From Solirubrobacterales bacterium (GTDB lineage: Bacteria; Actinomycetota; Thermoleophilia; Solirubrobacterales; Solirubrobacteraceae): DNA of 35,322 nucleotides. Below are positions 163-35,128 of the stretch, one piece after another (the first letter of the stretch is position 1; each line of letters begins with the position of its first letter). A program made the translations under genes and the position numbers. The DNA lies in assembly GCA_027451345.1 (NCBI GenBank), contig DAIDJO010000049.1, forward strand, positions 1 through 35,322, read 5' to 3'. The notes beneath the pieces were generated by a model, which was not told the origin of the DNA, made no database searches, and saw only the letters and a program-made list of their open reading frames with translations.

Positions 163-1182
163 CTAGGCGACCACGATGATCGCGGTGACCAGCAGATTGA
201 GGGTGGCGAGCGGGAGCAGCACCTTCCAGCCGAACGACATCAGCTGGTCGTAGCGCAGGCGGGGCAGGGTCGCGCGGATCCAGATGAACAGCGTCATGAA
301 GAGCATCATCTTGGCCACGACGACGAACGGATCGACCCACCCGGGAGGATGGATCCCGAACGGCAGGAGCCAGCCGCCGAGGAACAGGGTCGTCGCCATG
401 GCCGAGACGACCATCATGTTCACGTACTCGGCGAACAGGTAGGCGACGAACGGCGTGCCGCCGTACTCGGTGAAGTAGCCGCCGACGAGCTCCGCGTCGG
501 CCTCGACGAGGTCGAACGGCGCGCGGTTCGTCTCCGCGAACGACGCCACCATGAAGATCAGGAAGCCGCACAGCTGCGGGATCACGTACCACATCCCGCG
601 CTGCGCGTTGACGATCCCGGTGAGGGAGAGCGTCTGCGCGGTGATCAGCACCCCCACGAGGGAGAGCCCCTGCGAGACCTCGTAGGAGATGAGCTGCGCG
701 GCGGCGCGCATCGAGCCGAGGAACGAGTACTTGGAGCCCGAGGCCCAGCCGCCGAGCAGGATCCCGTAGAACGAGATGCCGGCGAGGGCGAAGACGTAGA
801 GCGGCCCGACGGACACGTCGATCCCGTACAGGCCGACGTTGGTGCCGAGGATGTTCTGCACGCCCCCCCAGGGGATCAGCGCGAGCCCGCCCACCGCGGT
901 GAGGATCGAGAGCGCCGGCGCGAGGTGGAAGAGGAACCCGACCGACGTCGTCGGGCGGAACGCCTCCTTGCGCGCGAACTTGACGATCTCGGCCAGCGGC
1001 TGCATCAGACCGTACGGGCCGACGCGGTTGGGTCCGTAGCGGTGCTGGAAGCGACCGAGCAGCTTGCGCTCGTAGACGGTCAGGATGGGCAGCACCCCGA
1101 AGATGACGGCGAAGATGAGGATCGCCTTGAGGATCTGGATCCACCAGGGCTCGAAGTAGTTGACGTCGGCGAAGACGCTCAT
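163..1182 (-). CDS. nuoH: NADH-quinone oxidoreductase subunit H
   Basis: Membrane subunit of complex I (339 aa), which with NuoB and NuoD forms the quinone-binding chamber and links it to the proton-pumping arm. The protein has about eight hydrophobic helices and the family's conserved stretches: YERKLLGRFQ near residue 50, the RYGPNRVGP loop, the acidic loop AETNRAPFDLVEADAELVGG near residue 220, and RATLPRLRYDQL near the C-terminus. Length is normal for the family. The ATG at 1180-1182 overlaps the nuoG stop by four bases (translational coupling). The frame stays open far upstream of this ATG, antiparallel to nothing real; that extension is an out-of-frame reading of nuoG and is not part of the gene. 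Confidence 0.97.
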   Translation of the reverse strand: MSVFADVNYFEPWWIQILKAILIFAVIFGVLPILTVYERKLLGRFQHRYGPNRVGPYGLMQPLAEIVKFARKEAFRPTTSVGFLFHLAPALSILTAVGGLALIPWGGVQNILGTNVGLYGIDVSVGPLYVFALAGISFYGILLGGWASGSKYSFLGSMRAAAQLISYEVSQGLSLVGVLITAQTLSLTGIVNAQRGMWYVIPQLCGFLIFMVASFAETNRAPFDLVEADAELVGGYFTEYGGTPFVAYLFAEYVNMMVVSAMATTLFLGGWLLPFGIHPPGWVDPFVVVAKMMLFMTLFIWIRATLPRLRYDQLMSFGWKVLLPLATLNLLVTAIIVVA

Positions 1183-3626: not shown

Positions 3627-3655
3627 GTGGGGCTGAAGGTGTGCGGCGTGATGCG

Positions 3656-4959
<1,304 letters not shown>

Positions 4960-4963
<4 letters not shown>

Positions 4964-5685
4964 GGCGTCTCCTCCGGGTTCACCGGTCCGCTGACCGGTG
5001 AACCGGCCACCGCGTCCTCCTGGCCCACCGGCGCGATGCCGTCGAAGCCCTCGACGCGTCCGTGCGCGTCGGCGACCGCCCGGCGGCGGAGCTGCTTGTG
5101 CTCGAGGACGGGGCGTCCAGCCTCGATGTCCTCGACGATCAGTCGGGCGTCGTCGAGGTCGAGCGGCCCGACGTACTCGCCGTTCACCGACGCCATCGGT
5201 CCGATGTCACAGGCCCCGAGGCACTCGAAGCCGCGCACGCCGATGTCGCCGTGGCCCTCGGCGGCGTGGCACATCGCGTCGTAGAACTCGTCGGCGCCGA
5301 GCAGCGAGCAGGAGATGTTCGTGCAGACGTAGACGTCGTGCCGGGGCTTCGGCTGCAGGGCGAACATGTCGTAGAAGCTCGCCACGGAGGTGAGGTAGGC
5401 GGGGGTCAGCCGCATCACGCAGGCGACCTGCTGGATCGCCTCGGGCGAGCACCAGCCGTGGTGGCGCTGGGCGAGGTGCAGCGCGGGGATGGAGGCCGAC
5501 CGGGCGTCGGGATACTTCGCCATCTCCGCCTCGATCGCCCGCCGCAGCTCCTCGGGCACCGGTGTGGTGGCCGGATCGGGGACCGTCGCGGGCGGTTTGG
5601 TCAGGTCGACGGCGTCGTCCCATCCGGGCACGCGCGAGCCGTGCTCGTAGCGCCGGACGGGCGGGCGACGGTCGATCGCGCTCAT
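4960..5685 (-). CDS. nuoE: NADH-quinone oxidoreductase subunit E ([2Fe-2S], thioredoxin-like)
   Basis: 24-kDa-type subunit (241 aa) carrying [2Fe-2S] cluster N1a next to the FMN of NuoF. The thioredoxin-like domain contains the four ligands as C-x4-C (VCTNISCSLLG) and C-x3-C (FECLGACDIG). The ATG at 5683-5685 was chosen because it overlaps the nuoD stop by four bases; the open frame continues upstream only as a shadow of nuoD. Compared with short NuoE proteins it has about 40 extra residues at the N-terminus and a C-terminal tail of about 50 residues with no recognised motif. The tail runs into the nuoF start. Confidence 0.96.
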
Positions 5686-6923
5686 CGGTCGACCCCCCCG
5701 AGGACCGGGTCGATCATCGCGAGCGTCGCGATGAAGTCGGCGATGTAGGCGTCCTTGACCATCGGCGCGGTCGCCTGCAGGTTGACGAAGCTGGGGTCGC
5801 GCATGTGCACCCGCGCCGGCTTGGCGGAGCCGTCGGCCCGCACGAAGCAGCCGTACTCGCCGCGGGGCCCCTCGATCGGGTAGTAGCACTCGCCCTCCGG
5901 CACGCGGAACCCCTCGGTGACGAGCTTGAAGTGGTGGATCAGCGCCTCCATGCTCGTCGCGAGCTCGTGCCGCGGCGGCAGCGTGACCTTGCGGTCATCG
6001 ACGATGTGGGGGCCCTCGGGCAGCCCGTTGAGCGCCTGCTGGATGATCTTGACCGACTCGTAGAGCTCGGCGTGGCGGACCCGGAAGCGGTCGTAGTTGT
6101 CGCCGACGGAGCCGACGGGGATCTTGAAGTCGAACTGGTCGTAGCTCGAGTACGGCTGCGCCTTGCGCAGATCCCACGGCACTCCGGCCGCGCGCAGCAG
6201 GGGTCCGGTGACCCCCAGCCCGAGCAGCGTCTCGGCGTCGAGCGGGCAGGTGTCGCGCAGACGGCCGAGCAGGATCTCGTTCTTCTCGAGCAGATCGGCG
6301 TACTGGTCGGCCCGCCGCGGCATCTCGTCCAGGAACGCCTGGAGCTTGCGCGCGAAGCCGGCCGGGATGTCCTCGATCACGCCGCCGATCTGGATGTAGC
6401 GCGTGTGCATCCGCTGGCCGGAGGACATCTCGAACAGGTCGAGGATCGTCTCGCGCTCGCGGAAGCAGTACCAGAACATCGACATCGCGCCGAGGTCCAG
6501 CGCGCTCGTGCCCAGCCAGACGAGGTGGGACATGATGCGGTTGAGCTCGAGGTGGATGACCCGCAGGTACTGGGCGCGGGGCGGCACCTCGAGGCCGAGC
6601 AGCGTCTCGACGGCGCCGCAGTAGGCCATCGCGTTGAAGTAGTAGGCGAGGTAATCCATCCGCTCGACGACGGGGATCGCCTTCCAGTAGCTCTTGTCCT
6701 CGGCGGTCTTCTCGATGCCGGTGTGGACGTAGCCGATGATCGGCTTGACGTCGCGCAGAACCTCGCCCTCGAGCGTGACGAGGAGGCGCAGCACGCCGTG
6801 GGTGGCCGGATGGTGCGGTCCGAAGTTGAGCGTCAGCAGCTCGTGGGTCTCGCCCATGCCGGCCGGCTCGCTCGAGAAGGTGACCGACTCCTCGCGCTTG
6901 CGGTGATCGCTGAGGAGGCTCAT
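5682..6923 (-). CDS. nuoD: NADH-quinone oxidoreductase subunit D
   Basis: 49-kDa-type subunit (413 aa), related to the large subunit of NiFe hydrogenases but without metal ligands. With NuoB it forms the site where quinone is reduced near cluster N2. Family signatures include NFGPHHPATHGVLRL near residue 33, GYVHTGIEK near 65, and HLELNRIMSHLVWLG near 125. The C-terminus ends in DPVLGGVDR, the expected family ending, so the gene is complete. The ATG overlaps the nuoC stop by four bases and its own stop overlaps nuoE by four. Confidence 0.98.
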   Translation of the reverse strand: MSLLSDHRKREESVTFSSEPAGMGETHELLTLNFGPHHPATHGVLRLLVTLEGEVLRDVKPIIGYVHTGIEKTAEDKSYWKAIPVVERMDYLAYYFNAMAYCGAVETLLGLEVPPRAQYLRVIHLELNRIMSHLVWLGTSALDLGAMSMFWYCFRERETILDLFEMSSGQRMHTRYIQIGGVIEDIPAGFARKLQAFLDEMPRRADQYADLLEKNEILLGRLRDTCPLDAETLLGLGVTGPLLRAAGVPWDLRKAQPYSSYDQFDFKIPVGSVGDNYDRFRVRHAELYESVKIIQQALNGLPEGPHIVDDRKVTLPPRHELATSMEALIHHFKLVTEGFRVPEGECYYPIEGPRGEYGCFVRADGSAKPARVHMRDPSFVNLQATAPMVKDAYIADFIATLAMIDPVLGGVDR

Positions 6924-7468
6924 CGGTCGGCTCCGTAGCCGTCGGTCTCGTTGTGGGTGAAGAGCACTGGCTCACCGCCGGTCGGGAAATCCCGGCGCTG
7001 CGGGAAGCCCTCGTAGTCCTCGGGCATGAGGATCCGGCGGAGGTCCGGGTGACCCTCGAACTCGACGCCGAACATGTCGTAGACCTCGCGCTCCTGGAAG
7101 TCCGCGCCCGGCCACATGAAGGTGACGCTCGCGATCCGAGCATCGTCGGTCGAGACCCGCGCCTTGACCGAGACACGGTCGACCTCCCGCATGTCGAGCA
7201 GCTCGTAGATGACGCCCAGGCGCGGCTCGTGCGGGTAGTAGTCGACCCCGTGCAGGCTGGCCAGGAACGTGTACCCGCGGTCGCGCAGCCACTCGAGCAC
7301 GGGAACGTTCCGGGACGGCTCGATCTGGATCTCGGCGCGACCGTTCACGTGGGTGGTGCCGAGGATGCAGTCGGGATCCGCCTCGCGCAGCGCCTGGGCG
7401 ATCGCCTCGAGCCCGCCTGGATCAGGCACCGGCCAACCCCCGCGGCGTGCCGCCACCGGGGGCGACAT
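6920..7468 (-). CDS. nuoC: NADH-quinone oxidoreductase subunit C
   Basis: 30-kDa-type subunit (182 aa from the chosen start) of the hydrophilic connecting module. The conserved C-terminal signature is clear: [31 protein letters not shown], then PQRRDFP. The start is uncertain. The ATG at 7466-7468 has a GAGGG ribosome site 8 bases upstream but overlaps nuoB by 47 bases. A GTG at 7427-7429, just inside the nuoB stop, would give 169 aa beginning right before the first conserved region and has only a weak G-rich site. Both are plausible; the choice affects only 13 residues. Confidence 0.93.
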
Positions 7469-8081
7469 CGAACTCACCCTCGCCGGGCAGCACCTCCTCG
7501 GTGCCGACGGCGTCATAGCGCTCGCGCCAACCCTCGCGCAGGTTGCCCTGGACCTTGTCGCGCAGCTTGAGGATCCCGTGGGCGAGCGCCTCCGGGCGCG
7601 GCGGGCATCCGGGGACGTGCACGTCGATCGGGAGGAACTTGTCGGCTGGGACGAGCGCGTAGTTGTTGAAGACGCCCATCGAGGAGCAGCAGGCGCCCAT
7701 CGAGATGGCGAACTTCGGCTCGAGCATCTGGTCGTAGATGCGGCGGATGACCGGCGCCATCTTCATCGAGACCCGTCCCGAGAGGATGATCATGTCGGCC
7801 TGACGCGGCGAGGCGCGGAACGCCTCGAAGCCGAACCGCGCGATGTCCAGGCGGGCGGCGACGATCGACATCATCTCGATCGCGCAGCAGGCGAGGCCGA
7901 AGGTGAGGGGATAGATCGAGTTGCCCTGCGCCCAGGCCACGGCGCGGTCGAGCGTCGTCGTCATGACCGCCTGCTCGACGTAGCGGTCGAACGCCTCGCC
8001 CTCGAGGTCGCTGCGCAGCATGTCCCGCGCGAGCATCTGGCGCGAGCGGAACTCCGTCGCGGACTCCCGGGTTATTTCCAT
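7422..8081 (-). CDS. nuoB: NADH-quinone oxidoreductase subunit B
   Basis: PSST-type subunit (219 aa) holding the terminal [4Fe-4S] cluster N2 that reduces quinone. Ligands are visible as the tandem cysteines in [11 protein letters not shown], the MGACCSSMG motif, and [10 protein letters not shown]. The ATG at 8079-8081 overlaps the end of nuoA by ten bases, and the frame upstream of it is a nuoA shadow. The C-terminal 30 residues after the conserved domain are Gly/Pro-rich and overlap the start region of nuoC. Confidence 0.97.
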
Positions 8082-9773: not shown

Positions 9774-11000
9774 ATGCTCGACATCAGGTTGATCAGGAGT
9801 GAGCCGGATGCCGTGCGCGCCGCGCTGGCGCGCCGGGGCGACGTCGACGCCGATGCGATCGACCGGGTGCTCGAGCTCGACGGCCGCTGGCGCGGACTGA
9901 CGACCCAGCTCGAGGAGCTGCGCGCCGAGCAGAACCGGGCGAGCCGGGGCCGACGCGGTGCCCCCACCCCGGAGGAGCGCGAGCAGATGGCGACGCTCGC
10001 CGCGCGGGGGCGCGAGCTGACGGAGCTGGAGACGAGCCTCCGAGGCGAGCTCGACCAGCTGCTGCTGGGGCTGCCCAACGTTCCGGCCGACGACGCTCCG
10101 CCCGCCGACACGGTGATCCGGGAGGTCGGCGAGGCGGGCCGGACCGGGCGCGACCACCTGGAGCTGGCCGGCCCGATGATCGACATGGAGCGCGCCGCGG
10201 CCCTCTCCGGGTCGCGCTTCGCCTATCTCCGGGGCGGCCTCGTGCTGCTCGAGCTCGCCCTCGTCCAGTACGCGCTCGCGAAGCTGATCGGCGAGGGCTT
10301 CGAGCCCGTGCTTCCGCCCGTGCTCGTGCGCGAGCGGGCGCTGATCGGCACCGGCATGCTGCCCGACACCGAGCAGCAGATCTACCGGCTGCCCGAGGAC
10401 GACCTGTACCTCGTCGGAACCTCGGAGGTGGCGCTCGCGTCGCTGCACCGCGACGAGATCCTCGACGCCGACGCGCTGCCGCTGCGCTACGCCGGGTTCT
10501 CCCCGTGCTTCCGCCGCGAGGCGGGCGCCGCCGGCAAGGACACGCGCGGGATCTTCCGTGTCCACCAGTTCGACAAGCTCGAGATGTTCGCGTTCGTCGA
10601 GCCGGACCGCTCCGCCGAGGAGCACGAGCGCATCCTCGCCATCGAGGAGGCGATCCTCACCGAGCTGGCGATCCCCTACCGGGTCGTCAACATCGCCGTC
10701 GACGACCTCGGCGCCTCGGCGGCCAAGAAGTACGACTGCGAGGCGTGGATGCCCGGCCAGGGCCAGTTCCGCGAGGTCACCTCGTGCTCGAACACCACCG
10801 ACTATCAGGCCCGTCGGCTCGAGGTCCGCTACCGACCGGCCGACGGGCGGCCGGCGACGCTGCACACGCTGAACGGGACCGCCGTGACGTGGCGGCACAT
10901 GATCGCCCTGCTCGAGAACGGCCAGCAGGACGACGGCACGGTCGTCCTGCCGGAGGTCCTCACGCGCTACGGCGCCCCGGCGACCCTGAGCGGGGCGTAG
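9774..11000 (+). CDS. serS: Seryl-tRNA synthetase
   Basis: Class II aminoacyl-tRNA synthetase (408 aa) that charges tRNA-Ser in the cytoplasm. The N-terminal coiled-coil arm (about residues 1-100) is followed by the catalytic core. Motif 2 is CFRREAGAAGKDTRGIFRVHQF near residue 243, with the serine-site TSEVAL before it and SCSNTTDYQARRLEVRY near 340. Motif 3 reads TLNGTAVTWRHMIALLEN rather than the common GSGLAVGR form, a variant I associate with actinobacterial enzymes. The ATG at 9774 has a GAGGAG ribosome site. The gene ends just before a strong hairpin. Confidence 0.97.
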   Translation: MLDIRLIRSEPDAVRAALARRGDVDADAIDRVLELDGRWRGLTTQLEELRAEQNRASRGRRGAPTPEEREQMATLAARGRELTELETSLRGELDQLLLGLPNVPADDAPPADTVIREVGEAGRTGRDHLELAGPMIDMERAAALSGSRFAYLRGGLVLLELALVQYALAKLIGEGFEPVLPPVLVRERALIGTGMLPDTEQQIYRLPEDDLYLVGTSEVALASLHRDEILDADALPLRYAGFSPCFRREAGAAGKDTRGIFRVHQFDKLEMFAFVEPDRSAEEHERILAIEEAILTELAIPYRVVNIAVDDLGASAAKKYDCEAWMPGQGQFREVTSCSNTTDYQARRLEVRYRPADGRPATLHTLNGTAVTWRHMIALLENGQQDDGTVVLPEVLTRYGAPATLSGA

Positions 11001-11002
11001 GT

Positions 11003-11033
11003 CCGCCCGCCCGGCCAGCGGGCCGGCGGGCGG
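11003..11033. terminator. Strong hairpin between convergent serS and fba
   Basis: A 13-bp stem with a single bulged C and a four-base AGCG loop fills the gap between the serS stop (11000) and the aldolase stop (11043). It has no T-run, so it may work on both strands or through Rho. Confidence 0.7.
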
Positions 11034-11042
11034 GTGTGACGG

Positions 11043-12134
11043 TCAGGCGACCGTCACCTCGTTCGCCAGGTAGACGTTCTGGATCGCGTTGAGGATCTCC
11101 ACGCCCTCGGCCATCGGGCGCTGGAACGCCTTGCGGCCGCTGATCAGTCCGGTGCCGCCGGCGCGCTTGTTGATCACCGCGGTGCGCACCGCCTCGACCA
11201 GATCCGAATCTCCCGAGGAGGCGCCGCCGCTGTTGATCAGGCCGGCCCGACCCATGTAGCAGTTGGCCACCTGGTAGCGGCAGAGGTCGATCGGGTGATC
11301 GGTGGTGAGCTCGCTGTAGACCTTCGACGAGGTCTTCCCGTACGAGCCGCCGTTCGCGTTCATCGCCCCGTAGCCGTTGTTGTTCTCCGGGAGCTTCTGC
11401 TTGATGATGTCGGCCTGGATCGTGACCCCGAGGTGGTTCGCCTGGCCGGTGAGGTCGGCGGCGAGGTGATAGTCCGCCTCCGCCGTCTTGAAGGCGGGGT
11501 TGCGCAGGTAGCACCACAGCACGGTGAACATGCCGAGCTGGTGAGCCTCCTCGAAGGCCTGGGAGACCTCCTGCAGCTGGCGCGTCGACTCGTCGCTGCC
11601 GAAGTAGATCGTGGCGCCGACGCCGGCGGCGCCCATCTCCCAGGCGCGGTTGACACTGCCGAACATCACCTGGTCGAAGCGGTTGGGATACGTGAGCAGC
11701 TCGTTGTGGTTGAGCTTGACGATGAACGGGATCCGGTGCGCCCACTTGCGGGCGACGGCCCCGAGCACGCCGAAGGTCGAGGCCACGGCGTTGCAGCCGC
11801 CCTCGACGGCGAGCTCGACGATCCGCTCGGGGTCGAAGTAGATCGGGTTGGGCGCGAAGCTCGCGCCCGCGCTGTGCTCGATCCCCTGGTCGACCGGCAG
11901 GATGCTGACGTAGCCCGTTCCGCCCAGCCGCCCGTGGTCGAACAGCTGGCGCAGCGAGCGGAGGGTGGCGGTGCTGCGATCGGTGTCGAGCATCACCCGC
12001 TCGATGAAGTCGGGGCCCGGCAGGTGCAGCATCGACGCGTCGATCGTCTGGCAGCGGTGCCCGAGGAGGTCATCCGCCTCGGCGCCGAGCAGGCCGGCAA
12101 TCGAGGTCGCGGTGGGTTCGGTCGCGGTGGCCAC
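11043..12134 (-). CDS. fbaB: Class I fructose-bisphosphate aldolase (DhnA/FbaB type)
   Basis: Schiff-base aldolase (363 aa) that interconverts fructose 1,6-bisphosphate with glyceraldehyde 3-phosphate and dihydroxyacetone phosphate in glycolysis/gluconeogenesis. The DhnA-type TIM barrel shows [13 protein letters not shown] near residue 78, [10 protein letters not shown] near 136, and ADIIKQKLP near 241, where K245 is the likely Schiff-base lysine. [12 protein letters not shown] near the C-terminus is the phosphate-binding end. The GTG at 12132-12134 has an excellent AAGGAGG ribosome site. It is convergent with serS and divergent from the acetate module. A TAACCT box at 12168-12173 (minus) could be its -10. 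Confidence 0.95.
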
Positions 12135-17555: not shown

Positions 17556-17728
17556 ATGATGTCGAGCGTCGGGGTCGAGGGGTCGGTCGCCTTCGGCTGG
17601 TCGGCCGCCTCGTCCGGGGCGCCGTGCGTGACCAGGAGCGGGACCGGCCGCGAGCCCTGGGCGTGCTGAAAGCTGCGGTACCAGTCGACGATCTGCTGGT
17701 AGGCGGGCGAGATGGCGGGAGTCGACAC
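17549..17728 (-). CDS. Very small hypothetical protein (59 aa)
   Basis: Short soluble protein with a central aromatic segment YQQIVDWYRSF and a Pro/Asp-rich tail; no family recognised. Nearly every codon ends in G or C, as in neighbouring real genes. The start is uncertain: the GTG at 17726-17728 opens at VSTPAISP, while another GTG at 17765-17767 would add 13 residues. No good ribosome site precedes either. Its stop codon lies in the right arm of the hairpin whose left arm holds the stop of the Nudix gene, which supports it as a true convergent gene. Confidence 0.55.
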   Translation of the reverse strand: MSTPAISPAYQQIVDWYRSFQHAQGSRPVPLLVTHGAPDEAADQPKATDPSTPTLDIIA

Positions 17729-17774
17729 GTTGCAGCTATCGGCAGACGCGGGCCGCGGCACGAGCACCGGGCCG

Positions 17775-17780
17775 TAGACT
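17775..17780 (+). promoter_or_regulatory. Putative -10 box (TAGACT), leaderless spacing
   Basis: TAGACT ends six bases before the GTG at 17787; no ribosome site intervenes. Confidence 0.5.
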
Positions 17781-17786
17781 CGGCGG

Positions 17787-17996
17787 GTGCTGACGATCTA
17801 CGGCGCCTGCGCCGTCACCTTCATGATGTGCATGTACGCGCTCGAGGGCCGTCACCGTCGCTACGTCCTCGCCTTCGCACTCGGCTGCCTGATGTCAAGC
17901 GCGTACGGATTCCTGTCCGGCACCTGGCCGTTCGGGGTCGTCGAGACGATCTGGGCGGTGGTCGCCCTGCGGCGCTATCAGCGGCAGGGCGACTGA
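17787..17996 (+). CDS. Small membrane protein (69 aa)
   Basis: Predicted protein with two hydrophobic segments (about residues 3-18 and 28-60, the latter possibly a hairpin with Gly/Trp/Pro in the middle) separated by a short basic loop, and a basic C-terminal end (RRYQRQGD). No family recognised. The GTG start at 17787 follows a TAGACT box by six bases, as in other leaderless genes here. G/C-rich third positions support coding. Confidence 0.7.
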   Translation: MLTIYGACAVTFMMCMYALEGRHRRYVLAFALGCLMSSAYGFLSGTWPFGVVETIWAVVALRRYQRQGD

Positions 17997-18100
17997 GCCG
18001 CGGGTCCGCGGCCCGCCGACCGGTGCCAGGGTCATCCGGAGCCGCCCCACGGGCCGGCTTCCGGACGCGCTTTAACGTGCGCACAGATCTTCGATCTTTC

Positions 18101-18130
18101 ATACGTCGCTGTCGGATACGTCGTTGTCGG
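18101..18130 (+). repeat. Tandem 15-bp repeat upstream of the LCP gene
   Basis: ATACGTCGCTGTCGG (18101-18115) is followed at once by ATACGTCGTTGTCGG (18116-18130), one mismatch in 15. It lies 60-90 bases before the LCP start, where an activator or repressor site could be. The gap 17997-18189 holds no gene. A TGTATA at 18175-18180, nine bases before the ATG, may be the -10. Confidence 0.5.
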
Positions 18131-18189
18131 TCCCCCGAGCCCGGGGGTGGCCGTGCTGCCAGCCGCCCGGGACCTGTATACGCCCGCCC

Positions 18190-20538
18190 ATGAGCCTGCT
18201 GAAGGACCCACCTCGGCCCCCGCGCACCAACCTGTCGCGGAGTGAGCCCCCGCGCCTGCCGCCCGAGCGGCGACCCCGGCGGATCTGGTGGCGGATGGCG
18301 CTCGGCTGCGTGATCCTGCTGCTCGCGAGCGCGGGCGCCGCCGCCGTCTTCGTCCTCGACCAGGTCCACACGTTCGTCCAGGACATCAGCGTCAACAAGC
18401 CACTGGCCGTCAACTCGAGGAGCCTGGCGGCCACGAGCTACGGGCGCCCGGAGACGATCCTCTTCGTGGGGAACGACACCCGTTCGGTGTTCAAGGACTA
18501 CCGGGGCGGCTACGTCCCGAATCTCGCCAACGAGATGCTGCTCGTGAGGTTCGATCCGAGCAAGCCGTGGATCTCGATGATCTCGCTCCCGCGCGAGCTG
18601 TGGGTCAACGTCACCGAGCCAAACGGCGTGACCTACACCAACCGACTGAACTCGGCCTACACCTTCGGCACCACGACGCTCCTGCGCACGATCAAGCAGG
18701 TCACCGGCCTGTCGGTCAACCACGTCATCGCCACGACGTTCACGCAGTTCGAGAACGCGATCAACAAGCTCGGCTGCGTCTACGACACGATCGACGAGCG
18801 CTATTACCACAACAACGCCGACGGCGGGCCCCAGTACCAGAACATCGACCTGCTCCCCGGATACCAGTGCCTGAATGGAAGCGAGGCCGAACAGTTCGTC
18901 TCCTACCGTCACACCGACACCTCGCAGATCCGCGATACGCGCGATCAGAGCTTCCTGCTCGCCGTCAAGCAGCAGTACGGGCCCCGGCTGGCGGGCAACA
19001 TCGGCGAGTTCGAGAAGATCTTCGGGCAGTCCGTGCGGACCGACCCGGGGCTGCGGAGCAGCAGCGAGATTCTGAATCTCGCGAATCTGTTGATCAGCGC
19101 GCAGGGACTCCGGGTCAGGCAGGTCCCGTTCCAGACCACCCCGTGTGACGGTGTCGACTGTCCGACGGCGGATCTCACCGCGACGGCGCAACAGATCCAC
19201 GACAGCGTGCACAACTTCCTCTTCGGGGGCGACATCATCCCGACCCGGCAGGTGGCCGCCATCGGGCACAAGATCCACCGTCACGGAGGGCTCGCGAAGC
19301 TGCCGCTGACGGCGACCCTCAGCTCCAATGTCGCCGCCGAGCGGGCCGCCGCGCCGCATATCCCGTTCACCGCGGAGTTCCCCAGGGTCCAGGATCTGGC
19401 CGGAAGCGCGGATCCCGTCGCGGCCCAGTGCACCACGGTGATGCAGCCCTGCATCCGCAGCTACGTGATCCGGGCTCCCGGTGGCCGTGCCTATCCAATC
19501 TACGTCGAGGTGTTCTCCAACGGGCTGCTCGGCCAGTACTACGACGTGCAGGGCACCACCTGGACCGGCCCGCCGCTGCTCTCGAGGCCAACCCAGACCA
19601 TCCGCGTCGGACGACGCTCGTACCAGCTGTTCTATGACGGCGGCCACCTCGCCACGGTGGCCTGGCGCCAGTACGGCGCCGTCTACTGGGTCCACAACAC
19701 GCTGACCGACGGCCTCGGTAACGGCGAGATCCTCGCCATCGCCGAGCAGACCGAGCCGATCGGCGCCATCCGCCACGCCCACACGTTGCCGATCCGCAGG
19801 GCGGCCTCGGTTCCGGTTCCAGCTGTCGCGACCGACTCCCCCGCTGCCACCGCGACGCCGTTGCTGATTTCCGTCGGGCGGCTGGGTGGACTCGTCGCGG
19901 TCCTGCTGCTGCCGCTCGGCGTGTTCCTGACCTACCGCAACCGCCGGCGTCTCCACGCCCTCAACGAACGAGCGGACACCACCGCACGGGTTGCGGCAAC
20001 CCTCGAGCATCAGCTCCTGGCGGCGGTGGCGGCGCAGCCGGCGTCGGGACGGCTCGCGGTCAGCGGCGCGCCGGGGGGTGCGCTGGGAACCGTCGCCGCC
20101 GGCAGCGGCGTCCGTCTCCACCGATCACGACCGTGGCGGGGGGCCGCCGTGGCGATCGGAATCGCCGTGGGACTCGTGATCATCGCCGCCGGCGTCTACG
20201 TCGCCCTCGGCGCCGGCCGGCCACGGCACGCCGGTGGCGGCGTCACCCGACCGGCACCCACCGCGCTCGTCGCCGTCCTCAACGCGGGGCACACCCCCCA
20301 CGCCGCCCATCACCTCGCCGCGCGCCTCGCCCGGGAGCACATCCGGGTGGCGGCCACGGGCAACCTCACCTCGGGAGCGCCGACGAGCTACGAGATCATC
20401 TACGCCCGCGGCGACCGTCATCAGGCACAGCTCCTGACACGCTTCCTCGCACCCCACCACGTGATCCTCGCCCCGGCCGACCGTGCGGCCGCCCGGATCA
20501 TCGACTCCGGCGCCAAGCTGATCGTCGTCATCCCGTGA
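18190..20538 (+). CDS. LytR-CpsA-Psr family protein with C-terminal LytR_C domain and three membrane segments
   Basis: Large envelope protein (782 aa). LCP proteins transfer glycopolymers from lipid carriers to peptidoglycan. After a basic Pro-rich cytoplasmic leader, helix 1 spans about residues 34-57. The LCP domain follows at about 88-262 (ISLPRELWV, LNSAYTFG and YRHTDTSQIRDTRDQ are recognisable). An extracytoplasmic region of unknown fold runs to about 555. Helix 2 (558-580), a basic cytoplasmic loop, and helix 3 (651-676) precede a LytR_C-like domain (691-782, beginning ALVAVLNAG). In the usual R-S-D-T motif this protein has L-A-N-E, and the usual PRD is PRE, so catalysis may differ. The ATG at 18190 is preceded by no ribosome site. 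Confidence 0.87.
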   Translation: MSLLKDPPRPPRTNLSRSEPPRLPPERRPRRIWWRMALGCVILLLASAGAAAVFVLDQVHTFVQDISVNKPLAVNSRSLAATSYGRPETILFVGNDTRSVFKDYRGGYVPNLANEMLLVRFDPSKPWISMISLPRELWVNVTEPNGVTYTNRLNSAYTFGTTTLLRTIKQVTGLSVNHVIATTFTQFENAINKLGCVYDTIDERYYHNNADGGPQYQNIDLLPGYQCLNGSEAEQFVSYRHTDTSQIRDTRDQSFLLAVKQQYGPRLAGNIGEFEKIFGQSVRTDPGLRSSSEILNLANLLISAQGLRVRQVPFQTTPCDGVDCPTADLTATAQQIHDSVHNFLFGGDIIPTRQVAAIGHKIHRHGGLAKLPLTATLSSNVAAERAAAPHIPFTAEFPRVQDLAGSADPVAAQCTTVMQPCIRSYVIRAPGGRAYPIYVEVFSNGLLGQYYDVQGTTWTGPPLLSRPTQTIRVGRRSYQLFYDGGHLATVAWRQYGAVYWVHNTLTDGLGNGEILAIAEQTEPIGAIRHAHTLPIRRAASVPVPAVATDSPAATATPLLISVGRLGGLVAVLLLPLGVFLTYRNRRRLHALNERADTTARVAATLEHQLLAAVAAQPASGRLAVSGAPGGALGTVAAGSGVRLHRSRPWRGAAVAIGIAVGLVIIAAGVYVALGAGRPRHAGGGVTRPAPTALVAVLNAGHTPHAAHHLAARLAREHIRVAATGNLTSGAPTSYEIIYARGDRHQAQLLTRFLAPHHVILAPADRAAARIIDSGAKLIVVIP

Positions 20539-27577: not shown

Positions 27578-27694
27578 AAGCCGCGTCGCCCGCTAGGGTT
27601 GGGTCCCTGCCTGCAGCGAGCCGGTCGCTGACGGCTCTCGCGACTGAACCCGCGAGGTTTGCCGATCCGCGGCCGAGGTAGTGGAGAGCTGGTC

Positions 27695-29368
27695 GTGCCC
27701 ACCCAGGACAAGACGGACGCAACCCGACCGGCGAGGCGCAACCTCGGGGTCGGCCAGGTCGCGTTGGAGCTTGACGATTCGATCGTCACCCCGGCGCGGC
27801 AGCTGCGCGACCTCGTCCGGCTGAGCGACCCCGCCCTGTCCGAGCTTCCCTTCGAGGAGCTGCTCGACGAGCTGCTCGTGCGCGTACGCGACCTCCTCGA
27901 CGTGAACACCGCCGCGATCCTGTTGCTCGATCACGAGGCCGACCAGCTCGTCGCCACCGCGGCCCGAGGGATCGAGGAGGAGGTCGAGCAGGGCGTCCGC
28001 GTCCCGGTCGGCCGGGGCTTCGCCGGCCGGATCGCCCAGGAGCGGGTGGCGATCTTCATCGCCGACGTCGACCATGCGGACGTCGTCAACCCGATCCTGC
28101 GCGAGAAGGGCATCCGCTCGCTCCTCGGCGTGCCGCTGATCGTCGAGGGCGACCTCATCGGCGTGCTGCACGTCGGCTCGCTGACGCCGCGACGCTTCGA
28201 CGTGCGCGACCTCGCCGTGCTCGAGCTCGCCGCCGCCCGGGCCGGTCCCGCCATCGAGCGGGCCCGCCTGCTGAGCGCGCTCGTGCGCGAGCACGCCAAC
28301 GCCGTCCTGCTCCAGCGCAGCCTGCTCCCCCGCCAGCTCACCGCCACGGCCGGCATCGCCGTCGCCGCGCGCTACCTGCCCGCCCGCGAGGAGGTGGGCG
28401 GCGACTGGTTCGACCTGATCGACCTCGGCCGGGGTGAGATCGGCATCGCGATCGGTGACGTGGTCGGCCACGGCCTGGCCGCCGCATCGCTGATGGGCCA
28501 GCTGCGCACCGCGTTGCACGCCTACGCGCTCGACCGCGAGGATCCGGCACGCACGCTCGAGCGCGTCGACCGGTTCGCTCGAAGCCTCGGCGATCACGCG
28601 ATGGCGACCGTGGCCTACGCCGTGGTGAACGCCGAGACCGGCACGGTCCGTGCGGCGAGCGCCGGTCACCTTCCCCCCGTCCTCGTGCCCGCCGACGGCC
28701 CACCGCGGCGCGTCGACATCCCGCCCGCCCCGCCGATCGGCGCCTACGACCACCGGACCGTCCCCGAGCACCGCTTCGCGCTCCCCCCGGGGGCCACCCT
28801 GCTTCTCTACACCGACGGCCTGATCGAGCGCCCGGGCGTTCCCCTCACCCACAGCCTGGGCGAGCTGCTCGACGCGGTGAGCGGGTCCCAGACGGCGGAG
28901 GACGCCTGCCTGCTCGCGATGGATCGGCTCGTCCCCCAGCGCGGCCCGCGCGACGACATCGCCGTGATCGCCGTGCAGAACGAGCCGATCCCGGAGCGGC
29001 TCGACCTCGAGCTGCCGGCACAGGCGGCGATGCTCTCGGGCATGCGCCGGATGCTCAACCGCTGGCTCTGGAATCAATCCGTCGACCAGACGGTCGCCAC
29101 CGAGATCCTGATCGCCGTGAGCGAGGCGTGCTCCAACGCCGTCGAGCACGCCTATGGCATCGACGAGGGCGCCCTGCGCGTGCGGGCGCAGCGCGTCGGC
29201 GACACGATCGAGGTGCTCGTCGCTGACCGCGGACGCTGGCGGCCCGCCCGCGGCGAGCACCGCGGGCGCGGGCTGACCATCATGCGCAATGCGATGGACA
29301 CCTGCGAGGTGCGGACCGGCGAGGAGGGCACGGAGATCGTGATGCGCCGGAGGATCGACCGGGCGTGA
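27695..29368 (+). CDS. GAF-PP2C phosphatase-HATPase kinase fusion (RsbU-RsbW-like)
   Basis: Predicted partner-switching regulator (557 aa). A GAF sensor spans about residues 45-200. A SpoIIE/RsbU-type PP2C phosphatase follows (about 205-410), with GGDWFD, GDVVGHG, YTDGLIE and RDDIAV as metal-site motifs. An RsbW/SpoIIAB-like ATPase occupies about 425-555, with SEACSNAVEHAYG (N box) and GRGLTIM (G box). One chain thus holds both the phosphatase and the kinase-type domain for the STAS protein encoded next. The GTG at 27695 has a GGAGAG ribosome site; a TTG at 27659 in the same frame is less likely. The stop overlaps the next start by four bases. Confidence 0.92.
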   Translation: MPTQDKTDATRPARRNLGVGQVALELDDSIVTPARQLRDLVRLSDPALSELPFEELLDELLVRVRDLLDVNTAAILLLDHEADQLVATAARGIEEEVEQGVRVPVGRGFAGRIAQERVAIFIADVDHADVVNPILREKGIRSLLGVPLIVEGDLIGVLHVGSLTPRRFDVRDLAVLELAAARAGPAIERARLLSALVREHANAVLLQRSLLPRQLTATAGIAVAARYLPAREEVGGDWFDLIDLGRGEIGIAIGDVVGHGLAAASLMGQLRTALHAYALDREDPARTLERVDRFARSLGDHAMATVAYAVVNAETGTVRAASAGHLPPVLVPADGPPRRVDIPPAPPIGAYDHRTVPEHRFALPPGATLLLYTDGLIERPGVPLTHSLGELLDAVSGSQTAEDACLLAMDRLVPQRGPRDDIAVIAVQNEPIPERLDLELPAQAAMLSGMRRMLNRWLWNQSVDQTVATEILIAVSEACSNAVEHAYGIDEGALRVRAQRVGDTIEVLVADRGRWRPARGEHRGRGLTIMRNAMDTCEVRTGEEGTEIVMRRRIDRA

Positions 29369-29748
29369 CCGAACCCGCCCTGAGGATCGAGACCGAGCGC
29401 GGGATCGTCTACGTCTCCCTGAGCGGCGACGTCGACCTGTCCAATGTGCCGGAGGTCCGCCGTCAGATCGGGGCGGCGGTGAGCAACCAGGCGCTCGGCC
29501 TGGTGCTCGACCTGAGCGAGGTCGACTACCTCGACAGCGCCGGCATGCACCTCGTCCACAGCCTGCGCGCCGACCTGCGCCGACACGGCCAGCAGCTCGC
29601 CCTCGTCATCCCGGCCGACTCCGTGATCAACGACGCCCTGCGCCTCGCCGGGATCGGCTGGGAGGAGCAGCGGATCGGAAGCCGCGCCGAGGCGGAGCGC
29701 CGGTTCGCGGCGGCTACTTCAGGAGCCGACTCAGCCGCCGGTCCTTGA
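29365..29748 (+). CDS. STAS-domain anti-sigma factor antagonist (RsbV-like)
   Basis: Small protein (127 aa) that in partner switching is phosphorylated by a kinase/anti-sigma factor and reactivated by a phosphatase. The STAS fold shows SLSGDVDLSNVP near residue 18 and DLSEVDYLDSAGMHLVHSL near 49, where S58 in DSAG is the expected phosphorylation site. The GTG start overlaps the upstream stop (GTGA), so it is coupled to the phosphatase-kinase fusion. No sigma factor gene lies in the window. Its last 35 bases overlap the 3' end of the convergent glycosylase gene. Confidence 0.94.
   Translation: MTEPALRIETERGIVYVSLSGDVDLSNVPEVRRQIGAAVSNQALGLVLDLSEVDYLDSAGMHLVHSLRADLRRHGQQLALVIPADSVINDALRLAGIGWEEQRIGSRAEAERRFAAATSGADSAAGP
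29708..29740. terminator. Hairpin inside the overlapping 3' ends of the STAS and glycosylase genes
   Basis: CGGCGGCT (29708-29715) pairs perfectly with AGCCGCCG (29733-29740) around 17 bases. It sits in the tail-to-tail overlap 29714-29748, so both genes carry it within or near their last codons. Confidence 0.4.
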
Positions 29749-31095: not shown

Positions 31096-32145
31096 CTAGA
31101 GCCCGTTGATCAGGCGCTGGTCGGCCGCGACGATCTTCTTGGGCAGCGGCACGAAGTCGAGCGAGGCGCCGTACTTCTGGCCGGTGGTCACCGCCCAGTT
31201 CAGGAACGCCTTCAGGTCGGCTGAGCTGATGCCACCGTGCGGCGCGGTGCCCGAGTTCACGATCGCGTACGTGTAGGTCGACACCGGGTAGGCGATCTTG
31301 TACTTCTTCGCCGGGTACTGGATCGGCACCCCGTTTGCACTCGTGAAGGCCGAGCCCTGCGCCGGCACCGTCGAGTTCGACAGCGCCGCGTTGGCGATGT
31401 TCTTCGGGTTCGGGAGCACGAAGTTGTGGGCGGCGTTCTGGACGGCGGCCACCTGGATGTGGAGCTGCAGCAGGTAGTACGCCGAGATGTAGCCGATCGT
31501 GCCCTTGTTGGCGTGGACCTCGCCGGCGACGCCGGAGTTGCCGTTCTCGCCGACGCCGACGGTCGTCGGGAACGAGGTCGACGGGACCGTCTTCCAGATC
31601 TTCGGCGCGCCGTGGTACATGAAGTTCTGGAAGGCGAACGAGTCACCCGAGCCGTCCGAGCGGAAGACCGGGGTGATCTTGCCGGCGCGCTTCAGCGCCT
31701 TGGCGTAGTGCTTGTTCAGCTTGACGATCGCCGGGCTGCCCCAGGTCGTGATCTTGCCGGTGAAGATGCCGGCCAGGACGGGAGCGGTCAGACGCAGGCC
31801 GTTCTTGACACCCGGGACGTTGTAGCCGACGCCGGTCGCCGTCAGCGCCCACGGGATCTCGACCGGCTTGTACGGATCGGACGCGAAGGCGGTCGCGGTC
31901 ATCGGCGCGTCGGAGGCGCCGATGTCGACGAGGTTGCCCTCGATGTCCTTCTGGCCGACACCGGAACCGCCGGCCGCCGGGGCGATCGAGGCGCCGGTGT
32001 AGACCTGCGACCAGCGCGCGACGAGCGGGAACACGAGCGAGGAGCCAGCCTCGTTGATCGTGGCGGCGGAGGCGCTCGCCGCCGCCGTGGACGCGGTCAC
32101 GCCGAACGCGGCGGCGCCCAGGCAGATGATCCTCTTGAGATGCAA
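31096..32145 (-). CDS. pstS: Phosphate-binding protein PstS
   Basis: Extracytoplasmic solute-binding protein (349 aa) that delivers phosphate to the PstCAB transporter. A signal peptide ends near ASASA-AT (residues 23-28) with an A-x-A cleavage site; there is no lipobox cysteine, so the protein seems to be secreted without a lipid anchor. Phosphate-site motifs include EAGSSLVFPL, AAGGSGVGQKDI and DIGASDAPM in the first half and FRSDGSGDSFAFQNF near residue 165. The only suitable start is the TTG at 32143-32145, with AAAGGA nine bases upstream. It is divergent from pstCAB rather than first in their operon. Confidence 0.95.
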   Translation of the reverse strand: MHLKRIICLGAAAFGVTASTAAASASAATINEAGSSLVFPLVARWSQVYTGASIAPAAGGSGVGQKDIEGNLVDIGASDAPMTATAFASDPYKPVEIPWALTATGVGYNVPGVKNGLRLTAPVLAGIFTGKITTWGSPAIVKLNKHYAKALKRAGKITPVFRSDGSGDSFAFQNFMYHGAPKIWKTVPSTSFPTTVGVGENGNSGVAGEVHANKGTIGYISAYYLLQLHIQVAAVQNAAHNFVLPNPKNIANAALSNSTVPAQGSAFTSANGVPIQYPAKKYKIAYPVSTYTYAIVNSGTAPHGGISSADLKAFLNWAVTTGQKYGASLDFVPLPKKIVAADQRLINGL

Positions 32146-32177
32146 GATGCGGTTCCTTTCGGACTGAAGTAGGTCGT

Positions 32178-32208
32178 GACTCGCCGATCGGGAACGTCAT
32201 GGCGAGTC
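32178..32208. promoter_or_regulatory. Inverted repeat in the pstS leader region
   Basis: GACTCGCC (32178-32185) and GGCGAGTC (32201-32208) form a perfect 8-bp inverted repeat 15 bases apart, 33-63 bases before the pstS start. It may be a leader hairpin or an operator. Confidence 0.4.
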
Positions 32209-32266
32209 GAGCGTGTCCGGCCGTTCACGCCTGGGATGAAGCATGTGGCAGGGCGCGCCCTGACTT

Positions 32267-32303
32267 GTTATCAGGTGGTTACTGAGATTTTGAAAGCTTG
32301 TAA
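32267..32303 (+). promoter_or_regulatory. Pho-box-like repeat phased at 11 bp
   Basis: GTTA at 32267 and 32278, TTTG at 32289 and GTAA at 32300 begin exactly 11 bases apart, the period used by PhoB/PhoP-type regulators. The last unit coincides with the -35 box of the pstC promoter, as expected for direct activation. The site lies between divergent pstS and pstC and could serve both. The two central units are good, the outer ones weaker. Confidence 0.5.
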
Positions 32304-32327
32304 CGGGGCGACCGGGCCAAATACCCT
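32298..32327 (+). promoter_or_regulatory. Promoter of pstCAB
   Basis: -35 TTGTAA (32298-32303), 18-base spacer, -10 TACCCT (32322-32327), followed by GTG at 32332. Confidence 0.5.
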
Positions 32328-32331
32328 GGGG

Positions 32332-33327
32332 GTGGTTTCACTACGCTCGCCGCCGGTGTCCTCTCTCGCATCTCAACCCGTGACCCCGAGTCGCGCCCGC
32401 CTCGCGCGCCTCAACCGCCTCGACGCGCGCGCCAGCCGCGCGCTGCGCGGGTTGGCCCTCGCCGGGGGCGCGATCGTCTTCATCGCGCTGATCGCGATCG
32501 TCTACCAGATCATCAACCAGGCCTCGCCGGCGATCAGCAAGTACGGGCTCTCCTTCCTCGCCCGCACGAACTGGAACCCCTCCGCCAACGTCTTCGGCGC
32601 CTGGCCGATGATCTTCGGGACGCTGGTGACGAGCCTCTGCAGCCTCGTCCTCGCCACCCTGCTCGGGGTGGCGATCGGGCTCTTCCTGAGCCTGATGGCC
32701 CCCCGCCACGTCTCGGCCGTGGTCGGCCCGCTCGTCGAGATGCTCGCCGCGATCCCGAGCGTCGTGCTCGGCCTGGTCGGGATCTACCTGATCGCCCCGT
32801 TCGTGCTGCACGACATCGAGGGCTGGCTGCACGCCGGGCTCGGCTTCATTCCCATCTTCGGACCCCCGGGAACCGTGGGCAACTCGGTGTTCACGGCGAG
32901 CCTCGTGCTCGTCATCATGGTCGTCCCGATCATCGCCGCGCTCACCCGTGACCTCTTCCTGACCGTGCCTCGGGAGCTGCTCGACGGCGCGGAGGCGCTC
33001 GGCGCCACGCGCTGGGAGATGATCCGCGGCGTCGTGCTGCCGACGACGCAGTCAGGCATCGTCGCCGCCTGCATGCTCGGCTTCGGCCGAGCGATCGGGG
33101 AGGCGATCGCGGTGACCCAGGTGATCGGCAACATCACCGTCGCCCACCACAACCTCTTCGCCGGCGGCGCCACGCTCGCCTCACTGCTCGCCAACCAGTT
33201 CCTCACCTCACTCAGCGCGCTGAACACGGCGTCGATGTTCTACCTCGCCCTCATTCTGCTCGTGATGGGTCTGGCGACGAACCTGCTCGCCCGCTACGTC
33301 TCCCACCACTTCGGACGGGTGCGATGA
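32332..33327 (+). CDS. pstC: Phosphate ABC transporter permease PstC
   Basis: Inner-membrane permease (331 aa from the chosen start) forming the phosphate channel with PstA. A basic cytoplasmic leader of about 35 residues is followed by six helices. The EAA loop, which contacts PstB, is [23 protein letters not shown] near residue 220; [17 protein letters not shown] near 138 is characteristic of PstC. The start is uncertain: GTGs at 32332, 32356 and 32380 share the frame and none has a ribosome site. The first lies just after the -10 box, which suits a leaderless message. The stop overlaps pstA by four bases. Confidence 0.95.
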
Positions 33328-34220
33328 GCGTCACCGCGGCGGATCCAGCGCACGCGCTCACGCCGACGGGCAACCTGCGGCGGCGGCTCTTGATCAACCG
33401 GCTCTTCGTCGGGGCGACGGTCGGCGCGGCGGGTCTTGCCGTCACGGTGCTGTTCATCCTCATCTACTACGTCGCCAGCCAGGGCGCCGGCAAGGTCAAC
33501 CTGTCGTTCCTCACCTCGCAGCTCCCCCTCGTCTCCTTCGGGACCGTGCAGGGCGGGATCGGGCCGGCGATCGTGGGCTCGGGCGAGATCGTGCTGATCT
33601 CGACGGCGATCGCACTGCCGGTCGGCGTGCTCACGGCGATCTACCTCACCGAGTTCGCGCACCCGCGCGTGGCCACCACGGTCCAGACGGCGCTCGAACT
33701 GCTCGCGGGCCTGCCGACGATCATCGCCGGCATCTTCGTGGCGGGCCTGCTCGTCGATCACTACGGGGAATCCGCCTACGCCGCCGGGCTGGCGCTCTCC
33801 ATCATCCAGGTGCCGCTGATCGCACGGGCGAGCATGGAATCGATGCGCCGCGTGCCCTACACGCTGCGCGAGGCCGCCGACGCGCTCGGCGTCGCGCGCT
33901 GGCGGACGATCACGGGCATCATCCTGCCGACCGCCGCGGGCGGCATCGTGACGGCGACCGTGCTCGCCATCGCGCGGGCGGCCGGCGAGACCGCGCCCGT
34001 GCTGTTCACCTCGAGCGCGTTCGGCACGCACTACCAGCTGAACCCCACCCAGCAGGTGCCGAACCTTCCGGTCGAGATCTACAACCTCGTCAACTCGGCG
34101 AACACGACCGCCATCAGCGACGCCTGGGGCGCCGCCTTCTTCCTGATCGTCCTGATCCTGGCGACGAACGTCGCCGCCCGAGTCTGGCTGCGCCGCAGCG
34201 AAAGGAAGCGTGGACTATGA
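33324..34220 (+). CDS. pstA: Phosphate ABC transporter permease PstA
   Basis: Second permease half (298 aa) of the phosphate importer. Six helices are visible. The family stretch [20 protein letters not shown] lies near residue 128, and the EAA loop [23 protein letters not shown] near 180. [14 protein letters not shown] near 216 is typical of PstA. The ATG at 33324 overlaps the pstC stop and its own stop overlaps pstB by four bases, so the three genes are translationally coupled. Confidence 0.97.
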
Positions 34221-35128
34221 GCCGTACCGATCCGCTCGCCGACACCCGGCCGGACGCATCGACCTCCACCGCCTGGCGGCCGCGCCTGCGACTCTCCCAG
34301 CCTGATGGCCTGGCCGCGGCGCTCGAGGCGAGCGCCGCCGCGTCGGCGCCCGCGGTCGCAACCGAGGACGTCGTCTTCCAGTTCAATGGCGTCGGCGTCA
34401 AGTACGGGGAGAAGCGCGCCGTCGAGGGCATCGACATGGCGATCCACCGCAACCAGGTGACGGCCTTCATCGGGCCGTCGGGTTGCGGCAAGAGCACCGT
34501 GCTGCGCTGCCTGAACCGGATGAACGACTCGATCGTCGGCTTCCGGATCGGCGGTCAACTGCTCTACCACGGGCACGACCTGTACGGCCCGAACGTCAAT
34601 CGCGTCGAGGTCCGCCGCCGCATCGGGATGGTCTTTCAGAAGCCGAATCCGTTCCCCAAGTCGATCTACGACAACGTCGCATGGGCGGCCCGGAACCTCG
34701 GGATGCGGGACGGACTGGATGAGCGTGTCGAGCGCGCCCTGCGCGGCGCCGCCCTGTGGGACGAGGTGAAGGACCGCCTGAAGTCGAGCGCCCTGGGCCT
34801 CTCGGGCGGCCAGCAGCAGCGGCTCTGCATCGCGCGGGCGATCGCCATCGAGCCCGACGTGGTGCTGCTCGACGAGCCCGCCTCGGCGCTCGACCCGATC
34901 GCCACGGCGTCGATCGAGGACCTCGTCCACCAGCTCAAGACGCGCTACACGATCGTGATCGTCACGCACAACATGCAGCAGGCGATGCGCGTCGCCGACC
35001 GGACGGCCTTCTTCAGCCTCGACGACCGGCGCGTCGGCACGCTCGTGGAGTACCGGGACACCGCCGGCCTCTTCTCCCGCCCGCAGGACGCGCGGACGCG
35101 CGACTACATCACGGGCCGCTTCGGCTGA
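34217..35128 (+). CDS. pstB: Phosphate ABC transporter ATP-binding protein PstB
   Basis: ATPase (303 aa) that powers phosphate import. Walker A is GPSGCGKST near residue 90, the Q loop is [17 protein letters not shown] near 140, the signature [14 protein letters not shown] near 195, Walker [14 protein letters not shown] near 216, and the switch histidine lies in VTHNM near 250. The protein has about 45 extra N-terminal residues rich in Ala, Asp and Ser compared with typical PstB (about 255 aa); no ATG or GTG suited to a shorter form is seen, and the ATGA overlap with pstA supports the long start. No phoU follows within the window. Confidence 0.97.

What the first reader, a model, noticed from the sequence alone, without database searches (positions are those of the whole stretch)
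18190..20538. LCP protein with three membrane segments, an unknown middle domain and an altered active-site motif
Most LCP proteins have one membrane helix and about 300-500 residues. This one is 782 residues: helix, LCP domain, an unassigned extracytoplasmic region of about 290 residues, helix, basic cytoplasmic loop, helix, LytR_C domain. The conserved R-S-D-T stretch is L-A-N-E and PRD is PRE, while the later R-H-x-D/R-x-x-R segment is kept. It may bind or sense a glycopolymer rather than transfer it, or transfer a different one.
Basis: partly seen in the sequence, partly recalled or inferred. Interest (0 to 1): 0.6.

Follow-up and report, generated by a model that had tools for sequence, protein, structure and literature searches.

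The report
Polytopic LCP paralogue with rewritten active site
This gene encodes a real, strongly conserved side-branch of the bacterial enzymes that attach sugar polymers to the cell wall; in one order of soil actinobacteria this branch has swapped several active-site residues together and gained extra membrane segments, so it is probably a retooled ligase or binder rather than a broken one.

Summary
Window 18190-20538 encodes a 782-residue LCP protein: TM1, LCP domain, a second extracytoplasmic domain, TM2, basic cytoplasmic stretch, TM3, LytR_C. Three points change. (1) The "unassigned 290 residues" are two things: residues 265-348 finish the LCP fold (Z 24-26 to LcpA/TagT), and about 372-526 are a separate domain. 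Pfam does not know that domain, but it is ordinary here: found in all 27 Thermoleophilia genomes sampled and none of 269 other Actinomycetota. (2) The motif change is larger than reported: against canonical paralogues of the same genomes, D97→N, T→E, D119→E, R217→S/T/A, D224→S and Q231→D (TagT numbering) change together; D82, R118, R219 and R227 are kept. (3) It is a family: one clade (support 100/100) of at least 38 sequences, only in Solirubrobacterales, all with TM2; about half carry TM3-LytR_C. Its LCP domain is at least as conserved as the canonical paralogue's. One 97%-complete genome has it as its only LCP. Best reading: a retooled glycopolymer ligase (about 0.5); rival: a non-catalytic glycopolymer-lipid binder or scaffold (about 0.35). 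No activity was tested.

The parts
18190..20538 (+). NE-type LCP protein, 782 aa (ATG start; in-frame TTG at 18124 possible)
   Evidence: relatives full length
18301..18357 (+). TM1 (residues ~38-56), N-terminus cytoplasmic (10 K/R against 3 D/E in 1-37)
   Evidence: hydropathy, AF2 helix 30-66, charge count
18400..19233 (+). extracytoplasmic LCP domain (residues ~71-348)
   Evidence: VIA-align Z 26.0 to S. aureus LcpA 6uex (239 aligned, 2.4 A), 24.9 to TagT 6mps; Pfam PF03816
18475..18477 (+). D96, equivalent of Cps2A D234 / TagT D82, kept in the clade
18529..18534 (+). N114-E115: N replaces the second Mg-binding Asp (Cps2A D246, TagT D97), E replaces Thr/Ala; invariant in the clade
18592..18597 (+). 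R135 kept (Cps2A R267, TagT R118); E136 replaces Asp of PRD (two members keep D)
18901..18909 (+). S238-Y-R240: first Arg of V-R-x-R (Cps2A R362, TagT R217) lost, second (TagT R219) kept
18922..18945 (+). S245 (for Asp, Cps2A D371), R248 kept (R374, TagT R227), new D249, D252 (for Gln, Q378)
19303..19767 (+). middle domain (residues ~372-526), alpha-beta fold, Thermoleophilia-specific LCP accessory domain
   Evidence: own model pLDDT 85; RseB C-terminal domain Z 8.9-9.2, Tsi3 8.3-8.9; 27 of 27 class genomes, 0 of 269 others
19861..19917 (+). TM2 (residues ~558-576), present in every intact member of the clade and in no canonical relative
19918..20145 (+). cytoplasmic stretch 577-652: amphipathic helix to ~614 with a conserved basic start (R-R-x-x-L-x-x-L-R), then a disordered linker
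20146..20202 (+). TM3 (residues ~653-671), in members with LytR_C
20260..20535 (+). LytR_C domain (residues ~691-782), extracytoplasmic
   Evidence: Pfam 21.7 bits; Rv0431/VirR 2m5y profile E 8.7e-10, Foldseek E 7e-4, Z 7.3

Best explanation
It is a lineage-specific LCP paralogue of Solirubrobacterales that arose once from an LCP-plus-middle-domain protein, gained a second transmembrane helix with a cytoplasmic helical tail (and in part of the clade a third helix with a LytR_C domain), and had its active site rewritten as a unit. SHOWN: the anatomy, the single origin, the fixed residue changes and the strong conservation. INFERRED: the extracytoplasmic LCP domain still holds a polyprenyl-linked glycopolymer donor in the LCP tunnel. 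It still transfers the glycopolymer to a wall acceptor, using the kept D96, R135, R240 and R248, with a new carboxylate (E115 and/or D252) taking the place of the lost second metal Asp. Loss of the R362-D371-Q378 subsite suggests a different donor head group or acceptor from the canonical paralogue. TM2, the cytoplasmic tail and (where present) LytR_C probably dock it to envelope-synthesis partners.
For: LCP fold Z 24-26 to LcpA/TagT/Cps2A. The three Arg whose single mutants each abolish TagT transfer (R118, R219, R227; PMC11337229) are all kept as R135, R240, R248, and D96 is kept. The changed positions are uniform: N114, E115, S245, D249, D252 and [STA]238 in all 17 paralogue pairs, against D, T, D, variable, Q, R in the canonical copies. 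Over 136 genome pairs the new type is more conserved than the canonical copy (LCP 62 against 57%, higher in 96 pairs; pairs not independent). Single clade, 100/100. Of 25 genomes at least 90% complete in the two genera that carry most of it: 10 both types, 5 new type only, 10 canonical only, 0 neither. G208 (97% complete) has the new type as its only LCP. This fits substitution for the canonical enzyme.
Against: One of the two Mg-binding Asp is gone, and both are usually present in LCP structures (PMC11337229). R362, a phosphate-binding Arg of Cps2A (PMC7831098), is lost. E115 lies next to N114 on a predicted strand (112-121) and may point away from the site. The 'never both absent' pattern is only suggestive (one-sided exact probability about 0.06 by hand, phylogeny ignored), and a third, shorter LCP is present in most of these genomes. 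No neighbouring glycopolymer cluster names a substrate.
Confidence: 0.5

Rival explanations
1. Non-catalytic LCP: it binds lipid-linked glycopolymer without transferring it and acts as a receptor, chaperone or scaffold; TM2 and the cytoplasmic tail relay or localise, and LytR_C recruits partners as VirR/Cei are thought to do.
For: Loss of a metal Asp and of R362 with its partners D371 and Q378; TM2 and a conserved cytoplasmic tail in every intact member and in no canonical one; precedents for LCPs lacking site residues: E. siraeum 4OBM and Streptomyces Vnz_11555, predicted inactive.
Against: Three catalytic Arg and D96 kept; new acidic residues strictly conserved; present without a canonical LCP-plus-middle-domain protein in 5 of 25 good genomes and as sole LCP in G208; no signalling domain in the tail.
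Confidence: 0.35
2. Degenerating paralogue under relaxed selection.
For: Departure from the catalytic consensus.
Against: Same substitutions in all members, one origin, LCP domain at least as conserved as the canonical paralogue, frames open in nearly all members.
Confidence: 0.03
3. An ordinary LCP ligase with the usual substrate and mechanism; the substitutions are neutral drift with little effect.
For: The Arg needed in TagT are kept; TagV carries a Glu for one Asp.
Against: Several linked, fixed changes clustered in the active site and absent from the canonical copies of the same genomes are not what neutral drift gives; 14 of the 15 NE-carrying genomes at least 90% complete in the two main genera keep another LCP beside it, which suggests a separate task.
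Confidence: 0.12

Closest known systems
Canonical LCP ligases (TagT, S. aureus LcpA, Cps2A)
   Same: LCP fold over residues 71-348; first metal Asp and the three Arg essential in TagT
   Different: second metal Asp, the R217/R362 position, D224/D371 and Q231/Q378 all replaced; extra membrane helices after the domain
Canonical LCP paralogues of Thermoleophilia with the same middle domain (e.g. G000:C34, L001)
   Same: TM1-LCP-middle domain, 36% identity over residues 30-541
   Different: single-pass, ends after the middle domain, intact RSDT/NTDT-PRD-VRxRH-ARQQ
Actinobacterial LCP-LytR_C proteins (C. glutamicum LcpA, Streptomyces CglA)
   Same: LCP domain and C-terminal LytR_C in one chain
   Different: here a middle domain, TM2, cytoplasmic stretch and TM3 lie between them
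LytR_C-only proteins VirR (Rv0431) and Cei
   Same: one TM followed by extracytoplasmic LytR_C, like the TM3-LytR_C end; profile match to 2m5y
   Different: here fused to an LCP protein
Multi-TM LCP clusters A2 (Actinobacteria, 2-4 TM) and F3 (CpsA-like, 3 TM) of Hubscher 2008 (PMC2632651)
   Same: more than one TM helix in an LCP protein
   Different: A2 was reported only from Propionibacterineae, Streptosporangineae and Micrococcineae; F3 has a different accessory domain; membership not tested by sequence

Membership tests
LCP (LytR-CpsA-Psr) family | LCP domain by profile and fold | tested here: met
   PF03816 E 9.5e-20; Z 26.0 to LcpA 6uex
LCP (LytR-CpsA-Psr) family | extracytoplasmic domain after an N-terminal TM helix | tested here: met
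   TM1 and charge pattern; topology itself predicted only
Catalytic LCP ligase | two Mg-binding Asp (D234/D246) | tested here: not met
   D96 kept, N114 at the second position in all members
Catalytic LCP ligase | Arg needed for transfer in TagT (R118, R219, R227) | tested here: met
   R135, R240, R248 invariant
Catalytic LCP ligase | fourth phosphate Arg (Cps2A R362, TagT R217) | tested here: not met
   S/T/A at 238
Catalytic LCP ligase | pyrophosphatase or transfer activity | not testable with these tools
   needs purified protein
LCP-LytR_C proteins of Actinobacteria | C-terminal LytR_C | tested here: met
   21.7 bits, just under cut-off, in this protein; 16 of 34 aligned relatives at E<=0.001; VirR structure
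Hubscher cluster A2 multi-TM LCP | sequence clustering with A2 members | not tested
   A2 sequences not at hand
RseB/MucB C-terminal-domain or Mog1/PsbP-like fold (middle domain) | fold match clearly above background | tested here: inconclusive
   RseB Z 8.9-9.2 over 97-99 residues, 3.2-3.4 A; Foldseek none at E<=0.001

The most novel reading that the evidence does not exclude
An LCP domain that has changed chemistry or role: a membrane-spanning glycopolymer-lipid receptor, or a transferase with a relocated metal site, coupled through TM2 to a cytoplasmic helix and, in part of the clade, fused to a VirR/Cei-like TM-LytR_C module.
Probability: 0.35. Interest if true: 0.7.

Novelty: new variant of a known kind. 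Interest (0 to 1): 0.5.

Why it matters
It gives a natural, conserved set of substitutions at LCP active-site positions next to an intact paralogue in the same cell, so the open questions of which residues set catalysis and donor choice, and why bacteria keep several LCPs, can be tested by residue swaps. The TM3-LytR_C fusion also ties the unexplained LytR_C-only proteins (VirR, Cei) physically to an LCP protein, and the middle domain is a class-wide part of Thermoleophilia LCP proteins that no Pfam family describes.

Tried and rejected
Viral contigs: no relative. Phylum-wide motif scan: one hit (L120) that is not an LCP protein. Conserved gene neighbourhood: none beyond close relatives (L062, L068, L069, L071), so no substrate can be named from context; window neighbours are GNAT, zinc alcohol dehydrogenase, LysR and MFS genes. 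ORF 17624-18193 overlapping the start codon (ATGA): wrong codon-position GC (0.84/0.65/0.59) and no relatives, so taken as chance. Middle domain by sequence: no Pfam or PDB match (DUF4367 at E 0.078 in one of 33 only). LytR_C split off into a downstream ORF in the shorter members: none found. Active-site geometry on the model could not be measured because coordinates are not returned. No paper found pairing LCP with 'pseudoenzyme'; papers outside the open library were not seen.

Full report
The protein. Window 18190-20538 (+) is an open 782-codon gene. Pfam finds PF03816 at 114-262 (E 9.5e-20) and, just under its cut-off, LytR_C at 694-758. AlphaFold2 on 34 aligned sequences (mean pLDDT 78.6) gives a TM1 helix 30-66, an LCP domain, a second alpha-beta domain, a long helix 558-614 that starts as TM2 and runs into the cytoplasm, a disordered stretch 616-652, a TM3 helix 651-675 and a C-terminal alpha-beta domain. 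Hydropathy places the membrane cores at about 38-56, 558-576 and 653-671, and residues 577-652 carry 11 K/R against 3 D/E.

The LCP domain is larger than the Pfam hit: residues 71-348 superpose on S. aureus LcpA (Z 26.0, 239 residues, 2.4 A), TagT (24.9) and Cps2A (24.5).

The middle domain (about 372-526) folds well alone (pLDDT 85, pTM 0.80). No Pfam family or PDB sequence matches it. Foldseek gives nothing at E<=0.001. VIA-align ranks the C-terminal domain of RseB (Z 8.9-9.2), Tsi3 (8.3-8.9), MucB (8.0-8.3), Apa, PsbP and LpqN; this is at the edge of background, so a Mog1/PsbP-like fold is a lead only. A profile of the domain matches all 27 genomes of the window's class (Thermoleophilia, by the names of the named relatives) in a 296-genome phylum sample and none of the other 269. 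In all seven relatives where the flanking sequence could be read through, it follows an LCP domain. It is therefore the normal accessory domain of LCP proteins in this class, not a peculiarity of this protein.

The active site. Sequence alignment to TagT and Cps2A with published residue roles (Cps2A D234 and D246 for Mg, R267, R362 and R374 for phosphate, D371 and Q378 supporting: PMC7831098; TagT R118A, R219A, R227A each abolish transfer: PMC11337229; TagT R95 position dispensable: PMC6381275) gives: D96=D234 kept; N114=D246 lost; R135=R267/R118 kept; S238=R362/R217 lost; R240=R219 kept; S245=D371/D224 lost; R248=R374/R227 kept; D252=Q378/Q231 changed; E115, E136 and D249 new. The equivalences beyond those printed in the papers are mine, counted from the alignments. 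In 17 genomes that carry both types, the new type reads N-E, V-[STA]-x-R, S, R-D-x-R-D at these places and the canonical copy D-T, V-R-x-R, D, R-x-x-R-Q, without exception. PRE is the only soft change: L015 and L017 keep PRD.

The clade. A tree of 76 LCP-plus-middle-domain sequences puts the 38 NE sequences in one clade with 100/100 support and one change of label. All intact NE members have TM2; no canonical relative has it. LytR_C follows TM3 in about half of those examined, and no split-off LytR_C ORF lies downstream of the others, so it was gained or lost more than once. A DNA pattern for the motif hits 33 of 232 genomes of the order, in 4 of 54 genera, with no control hits (the window's own gene misses the exact DNA pattern although its protein fits), and none outside the order in a 396-genome phylum sample apart from one non-LCP chance hit. 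Named carriers include the complete genomes Conexibacter sp. DBS9H8 and S30A1.

Is it alive? Over 136 pairs of genomes, the NE copies share 62% identity in the LCP domain and 54% in the middle domain, the canonical copies 57% and 50% (pairs are not independent). That excludes simple decay. In the two main genera, the 25 genomes that are at least 90% complete split 10 both, 5 NE only, 10 canonical only, 0 neither; the one-sided exact probability of no 'neither' is about 0.06 (worked out by hand), phylogeny ignored. Most also hold a third, shorter LCP without the middle domain. G208 (97% complete, draft) shows the NE protein as its only LCP. Taken together these favour a working protein that can stand in for the canonical one, more than a helper that depends on it. 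This is inference.

Mechanism. The co-loss of R362 with its supporting D371 and Q378, and of the second Mg Asp, removes one half of the pyrophosphate site as a unit, while the half that is essential in TagT stays. New invariant acids (E115, D249, D252) could hold the metal or recognise another head group. I put about 0.5 on a retooled transferase, 0.35 on a non-catalytic binder or scaffold, 0.12 on an ordinary ligase with tolerated changes and 0.03 on decay. Geometry could not be measured here.

Prior work. Multi-TM LCPs (clusters A2 and F3) were described in 2008 (PMC2632651); LCPs with missing site residues are known (E. siraeum 4OBM, TagV with Glu for Asp; Streptomyces Vnz_11555 predicted inactive). 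New here, as far as the open library shows, are the clade, the coordinated set of changes beside intact paralogues, the TM2/TM3-LytR_C layout and the class-wide middle domain. I file it as a new variant within the LCP family, not as a proven LCP ligase.

Noticed in passing
window 18775-18777 and 18868-18870 (residues C196 and C227): Relatives have C196 and the Cys of K-L-C-G; in this protein's own subclade that second Cys sits two residues earlier (C-L-N-G and variants), as if a disulfide partner had moved.
   Followed up: partly
L204 (G220:C10:14246-14544): A canonical LCP-plus-middle-domain gene appears split into two pieces beside an intact NE type in the same genome.
   Followed up: no
G390:C35 and C55; G278:C101 and C145 (L007, L051, L118): Two NE-type copies in one genome.
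   Followed up: no
L078 (CAJCHW010000167.1), 9905-11656: A contig labelled Chlamydiae carries an NE-type LCP nested inside the Solirubrobacterales clade; most likely a mislabelled bin.
   Followed up: no
window 31096-35128: Divergent PstS-like binding protein (minus strand) next to two ABC permeases and an ATPase (plus strand), a likely phosphate transporter set.
   Followed up: no
window 1179-7516: Complex I genes for the 30, 49, thioredoxin-like, 51 kDa and NuoG subunits in order on the minus strand.
   Followed up: no
window 27659-29748: GAF-SpoIIE-HATPase protein followed by a STAS-domain protein: looks like a partner-switching pair.
   Followed up: no
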